Origin: Vigna angularis
Taxonomy: Eukaryota; Streptophyta; Magnoliopsida; Fabales; Fabaceae
NCBI RefSeq assembly: GCF_016808095.1
Contig: NC_068977.1
Span: forward strand, 5,950,479 to 6,014,478
Reading direction: 5' to 3'
Length of the DNA: 64,000 bases
Shown: one piece after another, positions 41,936-54,205 of the stretch
How positions within the stretch are numbered: the first letter of the stretch is position 1
How the letters are laid out: each line of letters starts with the position of its first letter
Notes under the pieces: model-generated
The model's database searches: none
What the model was told of the DNA's origin: nothing
What the model saw: only the letters and a program-made list of their open reading frames with translations
Made by a program: the position numbers and the translations under genes

Positions 41936-43335
41936 CCCTTTCTTATTTCTCCCCTTTGTACCGTTTGAATAATATAAAGTATGATACTGTTGTTCCTTTG
42001 TTCTTTTCTCAGAATTTGTCTATCTTTGTTTTTATTTTTGGTATTTTATCGGAAACCCTAGACTAAAGGGGGAAATGTCGTGAGAGATAAAATTCTGGAT
42101 TGGGCAAACCTGTAGGATTATTTACTGTCGTTAGTGTTTTTGGGCTTGGTTTGCTTATTTGCAAAAGGGAATATTGCAATAAATGGATAAAGTGTGAGAT
42201 GATTACAAGAAATGGAAAAAGGGTAGTGTCGATGGAGAGCTACAGAGTGAAAAAGTTCCACGAAATCAGAGGGAATAGTGATTGGAATAGTTTTCAAAAT
42301 GGCAACTACCCAGCACGGTTATTCTGCTCAGCAGCAGCACGAAATGCAACGCAAACGTTTCTAACTGTCTTCGCGCCAATGCTGGAGCTACTTCCCATGA
42401 ACTGATTGAAATGATTCCCCTTTTTGTTATAGTCCGAAAACTCCCTGTCCATGCTGCATTGGCTCCCTCTGTGTTCCTTCATTATTATCTGTTTGATGAT
42501 ATTTTTTTTGAGTTAGAAAAAGGGAAATATTGTCATGAGAGTTGAACATCAGTTTAAGGTGTCCTGAATTTTTCATACATTTGCTTGTGGCACCATTTTA
42601 TTTTTAATTTATGTATTGTATATGTTATTTACCTGCATCCACTGTTTTTTACTGAGTGATAAATTTTCTTTGGAATCCATCACATATATTTTATTTATAT
42701 CACTACTAGGTTGCCCTTTATTGGTCAGTTGTATTAGCATTTTGCATTGTGCCCTGTTTGCCCCTAGATATATTGTGTGATTATGTTGTTTGTGGTTTGT
42801 ATATGGTGTTTGGCCACTGTTATTTATAACTCCTTGGATTTTATGTAGAGAATAGTTTCATCTAATTTATGAATTTAAATATAGGTTATTCTTTCATAGA
42901 GCTAAGTGGTTGATTAACACCAAAAGTTTGTTTCTCCAATTTTTCTGTTTCTAGTGTCCTTGTGGAATCAGCTCTTACGAAATTAATTGTTTTGCATGTA
43001 TTACCCTATGACAATTGATGCAGGAGTTAGATTTTACAAATGTTCGTGAACTTGAAGATTGCATGATTACCCTATGACAAATGTATGTATTCCCTTCCAC
43101 AGAGTATTTAATGCTTTCCTACTATCCACACAATCATTATTACCACTATTTTATTTTTTATGTTGTCTTTTTGTAGAATGTTTGATATAATTAGGTTAAT
43201 AAATTGGTAGGTTGAAACGATATTTGATGAATGACAGACATGATTTTTAATTTTCTATCTTTTATGGCTTGAAGTCTAACTTGTTTATTTTATGGACATT
43301 CAGTACAAACCATAGAGATAGTTGGAAGAGTCATT

Positions 43336-44624
43336 ATGGAGAAACAGGTTTGAATACACATGATGATTTATTATGTTTTTAAAATTAATTTGGTGAAATG
43401 ATTTGTCTGACTTATTCAATTGTATACTTTGATGTATAGGTTTATGTACGGCATTCATGCAGGACAAAATACTTGGCACATGTGAACACATTATTAACAG
43501 ATGTGCAAAAGACATTGATACAAACAACTCCTTTTGCATGGCTATTGTCCATTGATGTGGATGCCAAAATGAGTAGGACACTACTTTTAGAATTGTGTAG
43601 TAGATGGTCAGAGAGGAGGGGCGGGTTTGAAGTTAGGTCTGTCTTTATTCCATTCACCAAGTTAGACCTTTGTTTAGGTTTAGGGGTTAGGGTTAATGGA
43701 GAGATGTTTAAGTTGTTTAAAGACGAAGTTGATTGTCATACTAGGAGATTGAGAGACATAGCTAAAGCTAGTTTTGATCGTGACTTCACTTCCAATGCAT
43801 GGTTATGGGCTGAAAAATTCATTGACATCCACGGTAAAAACCTAATTGGGAGTTGATGTTCATAGATTTTTTGTAATTTGCTATTTTAGGAAGATTATCG
43901 AAATATTTATTTCATTTGCAGGATTGTTGATTAAACATGAGGTTGAGCATATCTCAACCCTTGATTCATTGAGAGGAACTTGTAAGTTATCGTTGTTGCG
44001 ATGTATTGTTAAAGCTTGTGAACATAACGGATTGGGTGACATGAAAATAACAATTCGGGTAGGTTGATGTATATTTACTTTGACGACCAGCTTCAAATAT
44101 AATTCTGATAAATGAACCTCTTTCTTAACAGGATCCAACAGGGACTGTAAAAGCAAGTGTTCACCACAAGGCCATTGATCATCCTGAAATAGGCATACAC
44201 TTAAAAGTTGGAAGTGTGATAATCCTACAAGATGTAAGTATATTTCATTTTCATTAACACTTAGCTATTGACCTTATATTCCCACATAAAAATATGGATT
44301 CCGCCAATAATATTTCTACAGGTTTCAATTTTTTCACCAATACGTGAAACATACTATCTTAACATAACTCTGAGGAATATTGTCAAGGTAAAGATTTTGG
44401 TGAACAATTTTCTATTGTACTATTATATATGTTGTAAACTTTTCTAGGACTTTAAATGATACTCTCGGATTGTGCAGGTTTTTGGAAGTGATATTGGGGG
44501 CCCAACTGATGACCTAGTACGTCTATCAATACCAATTGATACCAACAAGCCTCCAACACGCTCCGTTGATGACATTCTATCGAAATTGATTCCACTTCTT
44601 CACAAACCTCAAGGCACTGGATGA
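43336..44624 (+). CDS. Fusion of Ulp1-transposon-type N-domain with HROB-like OB-fold
   Basis: Six exons (43336-43347, 43440-43833, 43922-44058, 44132-44233, 44322-44387, 44478-44624) have GT-AG borders and consistent phases, giving 285 codons plus stop. The first exon supplies MEKQ. Residues 5 to about 135 (VYVRHSCRTKYLAHVN, LIQTTPFAWLLSID, LELCSRWSERRGGFEV, LDLCLGLGVRVNGE) match the N-terminal domain that precedes Ulp1-type protease domains in plant transposon proteins; a relative lies on the minus strand near 48.7 kb. From about residue 160 it reads KLSLLRCIVKACEHNGLGDM, DPTGTVKASVHHKAIDHPEI, GSVIILQDVSIFSPIRETYY and LNITLRNIVKVFG, which fits the OB-fold of HROB (homologous-recombination OB-fold, DUF4539). 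No protease triad is present. HROB proteins work with the MCM8-9 helicase in recombination; whether this fusion acts there is unknown. Confidence 0.7.
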
Positions 44625-44957
44625 AAGAAGAACAATATAAATGGCCTATGTTAAAACTTTCATAATTTCCTTGCCTGTATTTCAGATTTATCGTTGTTGT
44701 TTGTTGTCGAATATTGTGCGTGGTCACATGGATGTGTTATTTAGAAAAATTTGTGAACTACTTAACTTATGTTGATCAATTTGTTGTTGCATTAAGTGCT
44801 TATGTAATGTTCGTTATGTTATAAGTTTTATATGAAGTTCATTTCGTGAAAATTAAAAGTGTTTAACTTTATGGACAACTTTATTCGGTTATTTATTGAA
44901 TTGGTTTTCTACAACAATACAAGTGGTTATTTATGCAATTTGGTTTTGTACACCACC
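44625..44957. other. 3' flank of the fusion gene, no gene seen
   Basis: AT-rich sequence. The string ACAACTTTATTCGGTTATTTA (near 44875) recurs near 45661, suggesting a duplicated segment around the GC-rich array. Confidence 0.5.
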
Positions 44958-45325
44958 ACGAGCGTCCTATTTTATAAACGACCGTCCAATTTTCTGGAGG
45001 AGCGTCCAATTTTATGGACGAGCGTCCACTTCTGTACGATCTTCTGGACGAGCGTCCTTCTGGATGAGCGTCTGGACGAGCGTCCACATGTGGACGACCG
45101 TCCTTCTGGATGAGCGTCTGGACGAGCGTCCAACTGGTCCAGCGTCTGCACGACCTATAAACGACCGTCCATGTGCCAGCGACTGACGTATGGACGAGCG
45201 TCCACTAGCTTATCGAGCGTGGACTTGATCTTCTGTGGACGACCGTCCTCTTGTGCGTGCAGTGGGCGACGAGCGTCAGCTTGCTATGAAATGTTCGTGC
45301 GCTCGCTATGTGACGACCGTCCTGG
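44958..45325. repeat. GC-rich array of short palindromes GGACG-NN-CGTCC
   Basis: Seven perfect copies of GGACG(AG or AC)CGTCC and many one- or two-base variants are packed into about 370 bp. Each perfect copy has 5-bp self-complementary arms around two bases. GC content and CpG density contrast sharply with the AT-rich flanks. Open frames crossing it are low-complexity and not called as genes. Confidence 0.85.
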
Positions 45326-45340
45326 GCGACAGGGTGATGT

Positions 45341-45554
45341 GCGAAAACGCTGGACGCTCGGTCAGCTGTCCAGAACGAACGCTGGGTCACGTGTAGAGAG
45401 CGCTCGTTCACTAAATGCATAGGCGCTGATTTGGTTACAATAAATGGGCGAAAACGCTGGACGCTCGGTCAGCTGTACAGAACGAACGCTCGGTCACGTG
45501 TAGAGAGCGCTCGTTCACTAAATGCATAGGCGCTGATTTGGTTACAATAAATGG
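45341..45554. repeat. 107-bp tandem duplication
   Basis: GCGAAAACGCTGGACGCTCG begins both copies (45341 and 45448), which end CAATAAATGG. They differ at about two positions. Each copy holds a TCACGTGT motif that looks like a G-box core. Confidence 0.93.
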
Positions 45555-45856
45555 TTATGTTGTTAGACCTTTGTGGTTATTTCTGAATTTTATTTTGTAC
45601 AACAATATTACTGGTTAACTGGATATATGGACATCTTTGATGCAGTAACTGGATATATGGACAACTTTATTCGGTTATTTACTGAACGACCGCGATATTC
45701 CAACAACACATTTTTAACACTCTTTTAACATTATTTCATGGATAACTGTAATATTTGAAACGTACAATGTATCATTTTGTTGTGTATGTTGTGTAACTGA
45801 ATCTCTATTAATGGTGTGTTATAATGAATTTAATTATGTCATACAAAATGGTGCGT

Positions 45857-46940
45857 AAAAGTCAGTTTTTTTTCAAATGGTGACCTGTGTTCACCTGACT
45901 GAGTACCTGTGTTGGACTTTCTGTACAAATTCCCATTTTATCTCGGGTAATCGTTTACAGGGTTCCTGTAAACGATTACCAGCCCCATTTTTCAGCAGTC
46001 TCACTCATTTCTTGCACAGCTTGCTCCCCCAAGTCATGAGGGGTCACCCCACCCTCCTTGGCCTCACATCACATCATCATCCACCTTCTCCCACCACTGG
46101 AACACCTGCACAAGCCTCACACAGGTGCAGATTAGCCGAAAAGTCAGTTTTTTGTCCAATGGTGACCTGTGTTCACCTGACTGAGTACCTGTGTTGGACT
46201 TTCTGTACAAATTGGCAATTTCTCTCGGGTAATCGTTTACAGGGTTCCTGTAAACGATTACCAGCCCCATTTTTCAGCAGTCTCACTCATTTCTTGCACA
46301 CCTTACTCCTCCAAGTCATGAGGGGTCTCCACACCCTCCTTGGCCTCACATCACATCACCATCCACCCTCTCCCACCACTGGAACACCTGCACAAGCCTC
46401 ACACAGGTGCAGATTAGAAGAAAAGTCAGTTTGTTTTCCAATGGTGACCTGTGTTCACCTGACTGAGTACCTGTGTTGGACTTTCTGTACAAATTCCCAT
46501 TTTCTCTCGGGTAATCGTTTACAGAGGTCCTATAAACGATTACCAGCCCCATTTTTCAGCAGTCTCACTCATTCCTTGCACAGCTTGCTCCCCCAACTCA
46601 TGAGGGGTCACCCCACCCTCCTTGGCCTCACATCACATCACCATCCACCCTCTCCCACCACTGGAACACCTGCACAAGCCTCAGACAGGTCCAGATTAGC
46701 ATAAAAGTCATTTTCTGTCCAATGGTGACCTGTGTTCACCTGACTGAATACCTGTGTTGGACTTTCTGTACAAATTGACAATTTCTCTCGGGTAATTGTT
46801 TACAGGGTTGCTGTAAACGATTACCAGCCCCATTTTTCAGCAGTCTCACTCATTCCTTGCACACCTTGCTCCTCCAACTCATCACCTGTCACTCCACGCT
46901 TCTTACATTCACATCAATCACCTACACCCATCTCCCCACT
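45857..46940. repeat. Four tandem 282-bp units, each with a hairpin
   Basis: ATGGTGACCTGTGTTCACCTG starts at 45877, 46159, 46441 and 46722; the fourth unit fades near 46900. Because 282 is 94 codons, one frame stays open over three units (45877-46704), but the product is a Ser/Thr/His/Pro-rich repeat with no known domain and is not called as a protein. Unit 1 has a perfect inverted repeat at 45946-45980: GGTAATCGTTTACAG, five-base loop, CTGTAAACGATTACC. Unit 2 keeps it intact; units 3 and 4 carry one or two changes. Confidence 0.92.
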
Positions 46941-47883
46941 CAGAAATTTATCAAATCCGTCGCATTAATTACCATTAATTTTAGTGAAAATGGTCTCGTA
47001 CTGTTCAAATTTTAATTATAATGCTGCGTTTATTTTTCAATCGCTAATTTTGTCATTATAACAAACACAAACGCAAAGTAAAAACAATTCATTTCCAAAT
47101 CCAACCACTATTCTTATTACAAACACATAGTGTACATTGTCAAATAACATTAGGTACATATTTCAACATCTTATACATGTCAAAATTGTCAAATAACATT
47201 AGGTACATATTTGAACATCTTATACATGTCAAAATTTGATAATTTCTTAGCAATCCTAGACAATGCCGTATAGATGTAGGGCTTCCATTCTGCTAATGTT
47301 CTCATTGTCCAGGATGCAGTCACACAGCGAGAGAGAAGACGGACGAGAGACAAGGCTTGAACGAACGAGAAGAAGCAAGGCTTGAACGAAGAGAGACGGA
47401 CGACACAACAATACAAGTGTTGAACTTCAATTTCAATGTCAAATATTTTTCGTACAGTTAGTGGTTATCTGTTAAGTTTTATATGGTTATTTGCTCGATA
47501 ACTTTTGTTCACTGCAAGTTCTGCTAATTTAGTTAATAGCTTATGTACACAAAATGGACGTTGGTGATACTAGTGCATAACTAATCCTTCACTATACATA
47601 GTAAACAACTTAAAAAACCATAGAACAAAAATTGTTTCATATTCTATCATATTCCAATAACATCATTACAAGTTATATCCTATTTCATGACTTCTTCATT
47701 TGCTATAGCATTCCACAGTTCTTCATTACTGTACTTCTATGCATATTTCCTTCATGTAATACCCAATCACACACCGTTTGTTGTCGAATAAGTTGTAACT
47801 GCTCCTGCATTGATATTACATAGTGAAATATTATAATTAATAACCTGTTTTAAAAAACCATTTAAAACAATACAAACATATAC
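46941..47883. other. Intergenic DNA between the repeat array and the Ulp1-type fragment
   Basis: Contains a 49-bp tandem duplication (47137-47234, starting TTGTCAAATAACATTAGG) and a purine-rich stretch near 47320-47400 in which CAAGGCTTGAACGA recurs twice. No gene is recognised. Confidence 0.55.
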
Positions 47884-48905
47884 TTAAAGAAGACCAACCG
47901 TTGTGTAATCGGGCATTTTTTTCCCATCAAATTTAGGTTGGTTGTCCCATAACTCCATATATTTCATCACCAACAAACCACAATCATACCTACACATTAA
48001 ACTAATATTAGAAGGATCACATATGACACAACCTAATACATTGGTTATGGATAAGGTGACTAACGTATTTGGTTGAATTGGCAAATCTTCTTTAATGACC
48101 TTCAATTGTCGCTCCTCACAATTTGCTTCATTATCTATCATATTGAATAACTCTTGCAAACAACCGACCTTGGAAATTTGTATTCAACACATTCATTATT
48201 ATTGTACACCACTGACGCTAAAATAATACTTCCATCAAAATAACAAGTGTACAAAACAACTTCTCTTACCATTGCCTTGTCAATACCATATCTGGTCCGC
48301 CTCTTATGACCAAGAGAATCTAAAATGAAAAATTCCCTTGATTGGCAATTGACACAATAGCACCACCAATGGTCATCACTCACAGTAGGCACAAACAACT
48401 ACAGAACCACAACCACAAACATCAATATAGTGAACAACACATGTTATGATAAAGGTATACGTTGAAGTACTTACAAATTCAGAATTTAACAAATGATTTA
48501 ATGAACAACTCTGAGGTTGGAAGAAATTATGGTAATCTATTGCTTCCAATAATTCTCTCTTTTTTTTAGGAATCTATTGCTTCCAAGTATTATACAATGC
48601 CACCGACATCATTCTCTAAATTAACACTCTCACCAACATTAGGTAAACCTAAAAAAAAAACAAACTTCATCAACTCTAAAAGGCACTAAATTCTCCCTAA
48701 TCCTAAACGCCTTATGAACCACGTCCCACCTACTGATTAACTCTATAAGAATAGGGCTAGAAATAACCATATCATCAACCAAATCCACCAACCACTTGAA
48801 AGGTGTTGACTTTAAACGTTCCTTTTGAAAGGATGATAGGCAACCGTTCACTTGAACTATATGTTGTGTCTGGACTCGATGCCTAACTCTAAGTGAGGCC
48901 TGCAA
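47884..48905 (-). pseudogene. Ulp1-type cysteine protease gene of transposon origin, decayed
   Basis: Read on the minus strand, 48905-48639 gives the same N-terminal domain as the fusion gene (LRVRHRVQTQHIVQVNGCLS, KSTPFKWLVDL, LIELISRWDVVHKAFRI). The frame breaks in a run of ten T at about 48644-48654; a shifted frame continues GLPNVGESVNLEND, then stops. Further on, 48398-48160 gives FVPTVSDDHWWCYCVNCQSR and FFILDSLGHKRR, and 48159-47884 gives RYDCGLLVMKYMELWD. These supply the His, Asp and Cys expected of a Ulp1/SENP-type (C48) protease, spread over separate exons. Such domains are known in plant Mutator-like elements of the Kaonashi group. No transposase was recognised here. Confidence 0.75.
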
Positions 48906-49527
48906 GTATAAATCAAACCGTATGTTACTTAATTCAATACAACATTGTGCATATTTAATGGTAAATTAATAAAAATACACCATACTTACCATTTCACTGA
49001 CATCTTTGTCCATATCACTATATCCTGCAAATTTAACAAAACAAAATAATATTGATTGTATAATACTATGTATCTCACTTGACAGTCACATGTTCAAATT
49101 AATAAATTGGTTAAATACAGTGTATCAAACTAATGCATGCATAAAGTGGAATCGTGATATTAAAATTTGAACATTGACCACTTACTGTACCAAAAAATAC
49201 AATGTATCTAACTAATGCATGCATAACTAACCATAACACCACTGATTGCACTTTAAAATGTGGACATTGATATTGTATATAAAAACTGCTACAGATGTAC
49301 AAAAACCGATTTACAAATCACCACATCCGACTAACAACATAACCAGCTAATGCAGGGAGAATATTGCAATCTGATTTCGTTTGGGAGTGGAAGAAAAGGT
49401 TGCCCTGCAAGGTCACTGGCTTAGCAGGTTGTGAAGGGTCTCGTTGTTTCTAAGGCTCTCATTGTCTCATTGAATATAAAAAACTTCTACGGCAGTACAA
49501 AACCAGATTTACAAATAACCACATACG
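48906..49527. other. Flank of the Ulp1-type gene with short direct repeats
   Basis: ACTAATGCATGCATAA occurs about 81 bp apart (near 49130 and 49211). The segment 49284-49355 is duplicated at 49480-49532, and that second copy is where the copia element inserted. No coding exon was identified. Confidence 0.5.
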
Positions 49528-49532
49528 ATTAA

Positions 49533-50030: not shown

Positions 50031-50095
50031 GTTTCCTTCGTCTAAACCCTTAGGGTTTTCTTGTTCTTCGTTAGTACTATTCGTCTTCTTCAGAA

Positions 50096-53000
50096 ATGGC
50101 GTCTGGCAGTACTCTTTCCTTCTCTGGAAGTCCATCAATTACCTCCGAGAAGCTAAATGGAAAAAATTATCTATCATGGTCTGCTGCCGTTGAAATGTGG
50201 TTCCTTGGCCAAGGGCATTATGACCACCTTGAGCGAGATGGAAGCCATGTGCCTACTGAAAAAGCTGATCAGTGGAAACAAGCAGATTTCCAGTTGTGTG
50301 CCTTGTTATGGCAATCAGTGGAACCCAAACTTTTTGTATCTTTGAGGGCTTTCAAAACTTGTCACTCCTTTTGGAAGAAAGCCCAAAGCATTTATGCCAA
50401 CGATATTCAACGTCTCTATGACACTACGAATAAACTTGCATCTCTTAAAATGGCAGACCATGATATGGTGTCCTTCATGGCTGAAGCCCAATCTGCTCTC
50501 GAAGAACTTAGGATGTTTTTGGAAGTAGATCCATTAGAGGATATAAAAAAGAAACTAGACAAATTCTACATGGTGTTGATCCTTCGTGCCCTACATCCCG
50601 ATTTTGATCATCTCAGAGATCAACTTCTAACTAGTCATGAGGTCCCCTCTATGGAAACATTGACCACTCGCCTTCTGCGTGTCCCGGTATCTCAAACTCA
50701 AGAAACGCATGAACTAGTGGAACCATCTGTCATGGTTGTCACACGAGGAAGAGGAGGACGTGGCACTAGAGGAGGAGGACGAGGAGGTCGGGGACGTACT
50801 CAATGCACATATTGTAAAAGGATGGGTCATACTCAAGAGAATTGCTACTCCTTACATGGTTTCCCTTCCAAAACCGCCAATATTTCGAAGACTGAAACTT
50901 CCACTTTGAAAACTGAAACCTCCACTTCTATGTTTTCTGAGGATGAATATCAAGAGTATTTAAGGTTAAAGTCTAACAGCTTGGCACAACCATCTCAATC
51001 TCCCAATACATCAACAGCGTGCGTTTCTCAATCTATGGAATGTCAAAATTCATGGGTAATTGACTCAGGTGCTTCTGATCACATTTCTGGTAATACCTCT
51101 TTGTTCTCATCTATTTCCTTTCGAGAAAAACCTCATTTCATAACCCTTGCAAATGGATCTAAAACTTCTTCCAAAGGAGTCGGTCATGTTTCTTTGTCTC
51201 CCTCCCTCAATCTCAACTCAGTCCTTTTTGTCCCTAATTGTCCTTTTAATTTAATTTCCTTAAGCCAGTTGACTAAAATGTTAAATTGTTCAATAACCTT
51301 TGATCATAAATCTTTTGTTATACAGGAGCGTGGTTCGGGGAGACAGATTGGAGAAGGATATGAAGCTGGCGGATTATACCATTTTGGATCTCGTCCAAGG
51401 GTGTCTTGTGTTGCTGCTCTTAATCCTAAAGTGCTACATGATCGACTTGGCCATCCTCATTTGTCCAAATTAAAAAAGATGTGTCCTGAACTTAGTGGTC
51501 TCCAAACCTTAGAATGTGAGTCATGTCAATTAGGAAAACATGTTAGATCTTCCTTTCCTAAAAGGTCTCAATCAATATGTAATTCTAGTTTTTCCATCAT
51601 CCATTCTGATATATGGGGACCTAGTCGTATCTCCTCCTTTGGTTTTAGATATTTTGTTACCTTTATTGATGAATATTCAAGATGTACTTGGGTTTATCTT
51701 ATGAAAAATCGTTCTGAATTGTTAGCTATCTTTACATCCTTTTTGAATGAAATCAAGAATCAATTTGGTCAAGTAATCAAAATATTAAGAAGTGATAATG
51801 CCAAAGAGTATTTTTCATCCTCCTTTTCGGCCATCTTGAGTTCCCATGGTATCTTACATCAGTCTACTTGTCCTCATACACCACAGCAAAATGGTATAGC
51901 AGAACGAAAAAATAGACACTTGGTTGAAACTGCTCGTACCCTTTTGCTTGGTGCCCATATTCCTGTCCATCACTGGGAGGATGCCATCTTAACTGCATGT
52001 TATCTTATTAATAGGATGCCCTCCTCCTCTCTTGATAATAAAGTCCCTTTCTCCATTTTGTTTCCTAATGATCCTCTCTTTCATACATCTCCCCGAGTGT
52101 TTGGCTGTGTCTGTTTTGTTCATGACATGTCTCCAGGTCTAGACAAACTCTCCGCTCGCGCTCTCAAATGTGTCTTCTTAGGCTATTCTCGACTTCAAAA
52201 AGGATATCGGTGTTACTCTCCTGAAACTAAGAAGTATTACATGTCTGCCAATGTCACATTCTTTGAACAGACTCCTTACTTCTCTCCATCTGTTCAGGAT
52301 GTTTCTATCCTCCAGCAGGTCCTTCCTATTCCAATGGTTGAGTCAAATAACTCCACCGTCTCTGTCATTCCCAGTCATGATCACAATCCTTCTACACCTG
52401 TTTCTCCACATACTGAGATCATCCCACACAGGGCCCCAATGGATAGTCCACCTCCCCAAGACAATGGTGAATCTCCTACTTCAGATTCTTCTCCCTCGTC
52501 ACCTCCTCCCACGCCTCCTGGTGCAAATGATTCAGCATGGCCTATTGCCCTCAGAAAAGGTACTCGTTCCACTCGGAACCCTCATCCCATTTATAATTTT
52601 CTAAGCTATCATCGATTGTCGCCCTCCTATTTTTCTCTTTTATCCTCAGTGTCCTCTGTTGTTATACCCAAGAATGTGAAAGAAGCACTTGATCATCCTG
52701 GATGACGACAAGCTATGATTGCAGAAATGCAGGCTCTTGACCACAGTAATACTTGGGAGCTGGTGCCCCTTCCCCCAGGAAAAAAGGCGGTTGGTTGTCG
52801 ATGGGTGTATGCAGTTAAAGTTGGCCCTGATGGTGAAATTGATCGGCTCAAAGCTCGGCTTGTTGCAAAAGGTTACACTCAGGTTTATGGTCTTGATTAT
52901 TGTGACACTTTCTCTCCTGTAGCCAAGATGACTACTATTCGTCTCTTCTTTGCCATGGCAGCCATTCGTCACTGGCCACTTCATCAATTGGATATCAAGA

Positions 53001-54205
53001 ATGCCTTCCTACATGGTGATCTTGAGGAAGAAGTTTATATGGAGCAACCTCCAGGGTTTGTTGCTCAGGGGGAGTCTGGTATGGTATGCAAATTGCATCG
53101 ATCTCTATATGGCCTCAAGCAATCCCCACGTGCTTGGTTTGGAAAGTTTAGCTCCATTGTTCAAAAATTTGGGCTAAAACGCAGTGAAGCAGACCATTCA
53201 GTTTTTTATTGTCATTCTTCTCTCGGGAAATGTGTTTACTTAATAGTATATGTTGATGATATAGTCATTACAGGAAATGATGCTGTTGGAATATCTCAAC
53301 TAAAAGAGTACTTGTGTAGACATTTTCAAACCAAGGATCTTGGAAGTCTCAAATATTTCTTAGGTATTGAAGTAGCGCAATCAAAAGATGGAGTTGTAAT
53401 CTCCCAAAGGAAGTATGCTCTTGATATATTACAAGAAACAGGCATGATTGATTGTAGACCGGTAGACAGTCCCATGGACCCAAACCAGAAATTAAGGACA
53501 GAAGAAGGTGAATTATTCTCCGATCCAGAAAGGTATAGGAGGCTGGTTGGCAAACTGATTTATCTCACTATTACAAGGCCAGATCTATCCTTTGCAGTTG
53601 GAGTGGTTAGTCAGTTCATGCAGGCTCCATGTATTGACCATTGGAATGCTCTCATTCGCATTCTAAGGTATGTAAAGAAGGCTCCCGGGCAAGGATTGTT
53701 ATATGAAGATAAAGGAAGCATTCATGTCTCTGGGTATTGTGATGCAGATTGGGCAGGTTCACCTATTGATAGACGGTCTACAACAGGATATTGTGTTTTT
53801 CTGGGAGGAAACATTATTTCATGGAAAAGTAAGAAACATAATGTAGTAGCTCGATCAACCGCGGAAGCCGAGTATAGGGCAATGGCATCACTAACATGTG
53901 AACTTATATGGGTGAAACAATTCCTTCAAGAGGTTAAATTTTGTGACATCCATACTATGAAGATGTATTGCGACAATCAAGCTGCTCTCCACATTGCATC
54001 AAATCCAGTGTTTCACGAGAGGACTAAACATATAGAAATTGATTGTCATTTTGTTCGTGAAAAGTTGTTGACCAAAGAAATATGTACTGAGTTTATTGGG
54101 TCAAACGATCAACTCGCAGATGTATTGACCAAGTCATTAAAGGGTCCTCGGATTGAGTTTATTTGTTCCAAGCTTGGTACATACAATTTGTATGCTCCAT
54201 CTTGA
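50096..54205 (+). pseudogene. Copia gag-pol polyprotein with one nonsense codon
   Basis: ATG at 50096 (MASGSTLSFSGSPSI) begins a frame of about 1369 codons, open except for TGA at 52703-52705, where Trp is usual (DHPG-W-RQAM). Order: gag with the zinc knuckle CTYCKRMGHTQENC near 50800; protease with WVIDSGASDH near 51055; integrase with an HHCC finger (ESCQLGKH), HSDIWGP, RSDNAKEY and QQNGIAERKNRHL; RT from about 52715 with YVDDIVITG near 53253; RNase H with YCDADWAGSP and STAEAEYRAM. Gag, protease and integrase lie upstream of the stop, so the first part could still be translated. Without readthrough, RT and RNase H are lost. Every other motif looks normal. Confidence 0.95.

What the first reader, a model, noticed from the sequence alone, without database searches (positions are those of the whole stretch)
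43336..44624. Apparently intact fusion of a transposon-derived domain with an HROB-like OB-fold
Six exons keep phase through five GT-AG introns from a clean ATG to a stop, which is hard to obtain by chance. The N-terminal half is the domain normally found ahead of Ulp1 proteases in plant transposons. The C-terminal half fits the OB-fold of HROB, a recombination factor. The protease domain is absent. This may be a host gene fragment captured by a transposon, or a domesticated gene with a new architecture that could bind DNA.
Basis: partly seen in the sequence, partly recalled or inferred. Interest (0 to 1): 0.8.

Follow-up and report, generated by a model that had tools for sequence, protein, structure and literature searches.

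The report
Transposon-gene join with HROB-like OB-fold
In a bean genome, the start of a transposon-type gene has recently been joined in frame to most of an HROB-like recombination gene; the HROB-like part belongs to a dispersed family of shortened copies that evolve as if still useful and that are joined to the same kind of transposon gene in at least two other gene models.

Summary
Six exons at 43336-44624 (+) read as one 285-residue protein, and residues 157-240 match Pfam HROB (E 1.4e-23). The closest proteins are from Vigna, mainly adzuki bean. The join is young: residues 1-108 are identical (108 of 108) to a V. angularis plant-mobile-domain (PMD) protein, and residues 108-285 differ at 6 of 178 positions from a short HROB-like V. 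angularis protein. Only one junction, inside exon 2, is new; the introns are inherited. An open frame is expected at this age, so it is no evidence of domestication. The PMD is truncated (62 of 202 residues).

The larger result lies behind the chimera. Short HROB-like proteins of Vigna and Phaseolus form one clade beside host HROB (100/100), lack its C-terminal motif (0 of 25 against 92 of 104) and keep HROB-like constraint. Two more gene models, one adzuki, one cowpea, join PMD to short HROB. Best reading: short HROB is long-lived cargo of PMD/Ulp1-type transposons, and an internal deletion fused neighbouring genes here. Element ends were not found; transcription and dN/dS could not be tested.

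The parts
43336..43347 (+). Exon 1 (MEKQ), PMD-derived
   Evidence: Same start as P0007 and P0008
43440..43833 (+). Exon 2; PMD-derived to 43751, short-HROB-derived from 43749 (leucine 108 fits both parents)
43749..43754 (+). Junction L108-R109 between PMD-derived and HROB-derived sequence
   Evidence: Residues 1-108 identical to P0007; match to P0001 from its residue 54
43922..44058 (+). Exon 3, start of the OB-fold
44132..44233 (+). Exon 4, OB-fold
44322..44387 (+). Exon 5, OB-fold; holds F219 (probable counterpart of human F553, by counting only)
44478..44624 (+). Exon 6 and stop
43984..44486 (+). HROB OB-fold, residues 157-240 (introns included)
   Evidence: Pfam PF15072, E 1.4e-23
44996..45322 (+). 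Cluster of GGACGASCGTCC repeats that begins 372 nt past the stop
   Evidence: 9 of 9 matches in the window lie here; 0.05 expected. Belonging to the element is not shown
47721..48905 (-). Fragmentary PMD/Ulp1-like remnant facing the chimera
   Evidence: tblastn of P0007 and P0141; Peptidase_C48 at E 0.0071, below Pfam's cut-off

Best explanation
The gene is a recent join of two neighbouring genes of a Vigna transposon family: a PMD gene upstream and a short HROB gene (sHROB) downstream on the same strand. A deletion, possibly from interrupted repair of the element, removed the rest of the PMD gene, the space between the genes and the first 53 codons of sHROB, and by a one-in-three chance kept the frame. 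Shown: the two parents, the junction, the inherited introns, and, in the proteins sampled, one sHROB clade that keeps HROB-like constraint. Inferred: that PMD and sHROB sit in one element, and that a deletion made the join. Likely working of sHROB (inferred): most copies keep both the conserved region ahead of the OB-fold, presumed to touch MCM8, and the OB-fold, presumed to touch MCM9, so sHROB should act on the MCM8-9 helicase at breaks such as those left by excision. The chimera lost the IPGPAG and TQEF region, so at most it should bind MCM9, and it would act poorly or as a competitor, if it is expressed at all.
For: Residues 1-108 are identical to P0007, and there are 6 differences in 178 from P0001. 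2 of 142 fetched proteins hold both PMD and HROB matches: P0005 (adzuki) and P0142 (cowpea; HROB part 85 percent identical to P0026 over 111 residues). In both, and in the window, PMD comes first. The 23 short rows form one clade, 100/100, sister to the host HROBs of Vigna and Phaseolus (99/91). Short-HROB gene models whose names give a linkage group lie on 6 groups in adzuki (7 models) and 5 in cowpea (6 models, P0142 included) (names). Host residues are kept at 288 of 342 cells at invariant sites, against 353 of 664, 95 of 258 and 129 of 517 at increasingly variable sites; 0 of 20000 permutations reach the difference. AlphaFold2 of the parent P0001 gives confident OB strands, and the PDB matches are largely OB-fold proteins, though with low TM-scores.
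Against: No inverted repeats or target-site duplication were found around the gene, and no profile search for a transposase was made. 24 of 26 short HROB models (25 plus P0142) carry no PMD sequence. P0005 and P0142 may be annotation joins across neighbouring genes, which would show adjacency but not one element. Joined models can only be seen on one strand, so order (PMD first, 3 of 3) is the only orientation signal, and it is weak. No model joins complete copies of both. The sHROB stem is long (0.58), so its exact place in the tree could be affected by branch length.
Confidence: 0.6

Rival explanations
1. sHROB genes are ordinary dispersed host paralogues, and PMD transposons landed beside or inside a few of them; the window gene is one such insertion followed by a deletion.
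For: Element ends were not found; 24 of 26 short HROB models carry no PMD sequence. The constraint on sHROB would also fit a host function.
Against: Three separate PMD-to-sHROB joins in two species with different PMD subfamilies, and gene models on many linkage groups (names), are unusual for a repair gene.
Confidence: 0.28
2. The fusion is a domesticated new host gene with a selected function.
For: Open frame, intact splice sites, an in-frame stop upstream of the ATG.
Against: The two halves are 100 and 97 percent identical to their parents; the chance of no stop without selection is 0.72-0.85. PMD is truncated and the region ahead of the OB-fold is lost. No protein with this join was among the 25 hits (which sees lengths of about 157-499).
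Confidence: 0.07
3. An assembly or gene-model artefact.
For: No reads were available to test it.
Against: The junction lies inside one exon of continuous sequence, and exon structure on both sides agrees with other gene models.
Confidence: 0.05

Closest known systems
HROB / MCM8IP / C17orf53, activator of the MCM8-9 helicase
   Same: OB-fold PF15072; F219 where counting puts the likely counterpart of human F553
   Different: The chimera lacks the region with IPGPAG and TQEF and the C-terminal WTxEQL motif. None of the 25 short proteins has the C-terminal motif; 20 of 25 keep a loose IPGPA pattern and 18 of 25 a loose TQE pattern
Plant PMD proteins (MAIN, MAIL1) and transposon-borne PMDs (PMC5418596, passages seen)
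   Same: N-terminal 108 residues come from a PMD protein
   Different: Only 62 of 202 PMD residues are left
Ulp1-carrying VANDAL or Kaonashi non-TIR MULEs (PMC13317346, passages seen)
   Same: PMD/Ulp1-like remnant downstream; a related PMD gene joined to sHROB in cowpea
   Different: No protease in the chimera; MULE membership of the element is not shown
Pack-MULE and related host-gene capture (PMC13317346, passages seen)
   Same: Host-derived exons with introns, dispersed copies
   Different: One old origin in the sampled tree, kept under constraint, rather than a young fragment

Membership tests
HROB | OB-fold PF15072 above curated cut-off | tested here: met
   83.1 bits against 30.8
HROB | Conserved region before the OB-fold (IPGPAG, TQE), presumed MCM8 contact | tested here: not met
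   Absent in the chimera; exact IPGPA in 102 of 104 other HROBs and 13 of 25 short ones, a loose form in 103 and 20. That it is the MCM8 contact is inferred
HROB | C-terminal WTxEQL motif of plant HROB | tested here: not met
   Absent in the chimera; 0 of 25 short, 92 of 104 other HROBs
HROB | Binding and activation of MCM8-9 | not testable with these tools
   Needs protein assays
PMD protein | Complete PF10536 domain | tested here: not met
   No PMD match in the chimera; 62 of 202 residues left
Ulp1-bearing non-TIR MULE | Ulp1 protease in the same gene | tested here: not met
   No match in the chimera
Ulp1-bearing non-TIR MULE | Element ends (inverted repeats, target-site duplication) | tested here: inconclusive
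   None found; non-TIR elements need not show inverted repeats
Ulp1-bearing non-TIR MULE | MURA-type transposase | not tested
   No profile search over the window's frames was made
Domesticated fusion gene | Purifying selection on the fusion (dN/dS) | not testable with these tools
   No DNA of related copies was fetched; the genome search gave no answer

The most novel reading that the evidence does not exclude
A PMD/Ulp1-type transposon family of Vigna and Phaseolus carries its own working activator of the MCM8-9 helicase, taken once from the host and kept under selection, which helps complete long-tract repair copying at excision sites and so raises the number of element copies. The window chimera would be a by-product of failed repair of this kind.
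Probability: 0.18. Interest if true: 0.85.

Novelty: new variant of a known kind. Interest (0 to 1): 0.5.

Why it matters
Plant transposons often carry dead host fragments. A captured recombination mediator that stays under constraint and turns up joined to the same kind of transposon gene would be a rare case of cargo that may serve the element's own copying. It would make the link between transposon excision, MCM8-9 and repair copying testable in a crop genus. It also warns that many Vigna database entries named homologous recombination OB-fold protein are not host HROB.

Tried and rejected
DUF1985 as the N-terminal domain: rejected, because P0007 scores E 0.13 for it and 1.8e-10 for PMD.

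A full-length PMD plus sHROB gene model: searched with P0001 and P0007 joined; none among the 10 hits.

Terminal inverted repeats with a target-site duplication: none convincing. A 57-nt inverted pair, 45545-45601 and 49296-49352 (75 percent), lies outside the chimera.

GGACGASCGTCC-type repeats as a link to models P0023 and P0018: matches are weak (E 0.21 in the repeat region for the P0023 tail; E 0.035 elsewhere in the window for the P0018 head; none for the P0014 head), so not used.

P0006 as the annotated form of this locus: identical over residues 136-256, but no good match for its first 25 residues exists in the window, so it is probably another copy.

PDB sequence relatives: none at E up to 1 for the chimera, and for P0022 only two HtdX dehydratase matches at E about 0.34. 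Structure of the PMD parent P0007: poor model (mean pLDDT 57.5), not used. The sigma-70 promoter scan is not meaningful for a plant gene.

Papers: searches (HROB with plant, OB-fold, Arabidopsis; 2 papers; HROB full name; 2; DUF4539; 3) listed no paper on HROB in plant transposons. Searches listed 15 of 127 and 15 of 26 papers, none of that kind by title. One search listed 12 of 18,708, none holding the word HROB, so it says little. All this covers only the held open-licence library. PMC5735166 (passages) and PMC10398659 (no term found) were looked at for Ulp1 and DUF1985 and are not used.

Selections made before counts: the tree used 46 of the 137 proteins then held, 22 of 25 short ones (P0021, P0023, P0024 left out as irregular models), plus the chimera from residue 108. 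Searches used 20 of 104 other HROBs and 10 of 25 short ones. The split into 25 short and 104 other HROBs was made by me; the 104 include models of 232-655 residues from other plants. One search scored the 7993 candidates sharing most words and listed 120 of 367 hits, so short HROB outside Vigna and Phaseolus is not excluded.

Full report
Observation. The six exons and five GT-AG introns are as described, and the joined frame has 285 codons and a stop. Pfam HROB matches residues 157-240 at E 1.4e-23 and no other family reaches its cut-off. An in-frame stop at 43270 precedes the ATG.

Two parents. A search of 5.8 billion proteins returned 25 relatives at E up to 1, of which 24 are named as Vigna and one as Morus. 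None covers both halves fully. BLAST splits the query: residues 1-115 match P0007, a 461-residue V. angularis protein with Pfam PMD (E 1.8e-10), and residues 108-285 match P0001, a 231-residue V. angularis HROB-like protein. Counted directly, residues 1-108 show 0 of 108 differences from P0007, and residues 108-285 show 6 of 178 from P0001, one of them at the junction. The junction is at 43751/43752 inside exon 2; leucine 108 fits both parents, so up to 3 nt of shared sequence is possible (the parents' own codons were not seen).

What the open frame means. The introns are inherited from the parents, so only the in-frame junction (one chance in three) is new. With so few differences, the chance of having met no stop without selection is 0.72-0.85. 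Adding a guessed indel rate of 0.15 per substitution gives 0.31-0.56. The intact frame therefore says little about function.

What was lost. The PMD part keeps 62 of the 202 residues that Pfam matches in P0007. The HROB part lacks the first 53 residues of P0001, which hold the conserved PWE, IPGPAG and TQEF stretches. In human HROB, residues 396-413 suffice for MCM8-9 interaction (PMC7290032, passages). The human OB-fold is modelled to contact MCM9 through F553, is needed for helicase stimulation and is not needed for ssDNA binding (PMC11055865, passages). Equating the plant IPGPAG region with the human MCM8 contact, and F219 with F553, is my inference from order and spacing.

The short HROB family. 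An alignment search listed the best 120 of 367 hits. They include longer HROBs of 366-433 residues in Vigna and Phaseolus (P0033, P0034, P0035) and many short ones in the same genera. In a maximum-likelihood tree of 47 rows, the 23 short rows (with the chimera) form one group with support 100/100, sister to the longer Vigna and Phaseolus HROBs (99/91), on a stem of 0.58 changes per site. The stem is long and the tool flags some long end branches (P0045 among the short ones), so the exact sister is less sure than the group. The C-terminal WTxEQL motif is in 92 of 104 other HROBs and 0 of 25 short ones.

Constraint. Ten short lineages, 42 of 45 pairs 40-60 percent identical (the others 0.87, 0.69 and 0.61), keep the host residue at 288 of 342 cells (0.84) where the other HROBs are invariant, at 353 of 664 (0.53) and 95 of 258 (0.37) at intermediate sites, and at 129 of 517 (0.25) where they vary most. 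None of 20000 label permutations reached the difference between the first class and the two last. Each of the ten lineages shows it (0.72-0.91 against 0.24-0.30). Three cautions apply: gene predictors favour intact genes, host residues at variable sites may be derived, and only proteins could be compared. Some sites invariant in other HROBs are changed in all ten, for example alanine to cysteine at P0001 position 109, which suggests a common shift.

Link to transposon genes. Of 142 proteins held, 130 match HROB, 14 match PMD and 2 match both. P0005 (adzuki) begins with 21 PMD residues identical to P0007 and continues past the window's junction, so it is a different join. P0142 (cowpea) has 39-71 percent identity to the PMD protein P0141, then 111 residues at 85 percent to the sHROB P0026, starting within a few residues of the exon 5 boundary seen in the window. 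P0141's C-terminal part aligns with the fragmentary minus-strand remnant at 47721-48159 in this window, next to a frame with a sub-threshold Peptidase_C48 match. Pfam finds no protease in P0141 or P0142; the HW and DCG signatures of Ulp1 that I read in the remnant are recalled, not tested. Three joins in two species with PMD first each time fit one element with PMD upstream of sHROB, but element ends were not found.

Fold. AlphaFold2 on P0001 with 60 sequences gives mean pLDDT 79.5; block means are 86-96 over the OB strands at 103-185, and helices lie at 50-66 and 69-81. Of the 50 best Foldseek matches in the PDB, many are proteins known for OB-folds (Teb1, Oxytricha telomere protein, TPP1, POT1, RPA, tRNA synthetases), at E about 1e-4 but with modest TM-scores (0.26-0.36 by query length, up to 0.67 by target length). 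That these are OB-folds is general knowledge. The chimera starts inside helix 50-66. The chimera itself was not folded.

Mechanism proposed. sHROB could stimulate MCM8-9-driven repair synthesis after excision. [quoted passage not shown] This would favour copying the element back into the gap. No step of this was tested here. The chimera would at best bind MCM9 alone.

Known context. Capture of PMD by MULEs (PMC5418596, passages) and of Ulp1 by VANDAL-type MULEs (PMC13317346, passages) is published. I saw nothing on HROB in transposons in the listings, nor among the capped listings. The kind of event is known; the cargo and its long constraint look new.

Noticed in passing
window 47721-48905 (-): Fragmentary PMD/Ulp1-like gene facing the chimera; its PMD start is about 32 percent identical to P0007 residues 1-83, which equal the chimera's N-terminus.
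   Followed up: partly
window 44996-45322: Cluster of GGACGASCGTCC repeats (7 exact, 2 with one mismatch), the only one in 64 kb.
   Followed up: partly
window 45857-46936: Tandem array of 282-bp units, 3.8 copies, 92 percent.
   Followed up: no
window 45545-45601 and 49296-49352: 57-nt inverted repeats at 75 percent, with related copies at 44887-44929 and 49479-49532; possible subterminal repeats of one element.
   Followed up: partly
window 50075-54202 (+): Long frames that read like a copia-type retrotransposon; identification from reading only.
   Followed up: no
protein P0129 (Tetracentron sinense): HROB joined to an RNase H-type domain (RVT_3, E 3.9e-13), another gene model with transposon-like sequence beside HROB.
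   Followed up: no
sHROB alignment, P0001 position 109: Alanine, in at least 19 of 20 other HROBs, is cysteine in all ten short lineages compared.
   Followed up: no
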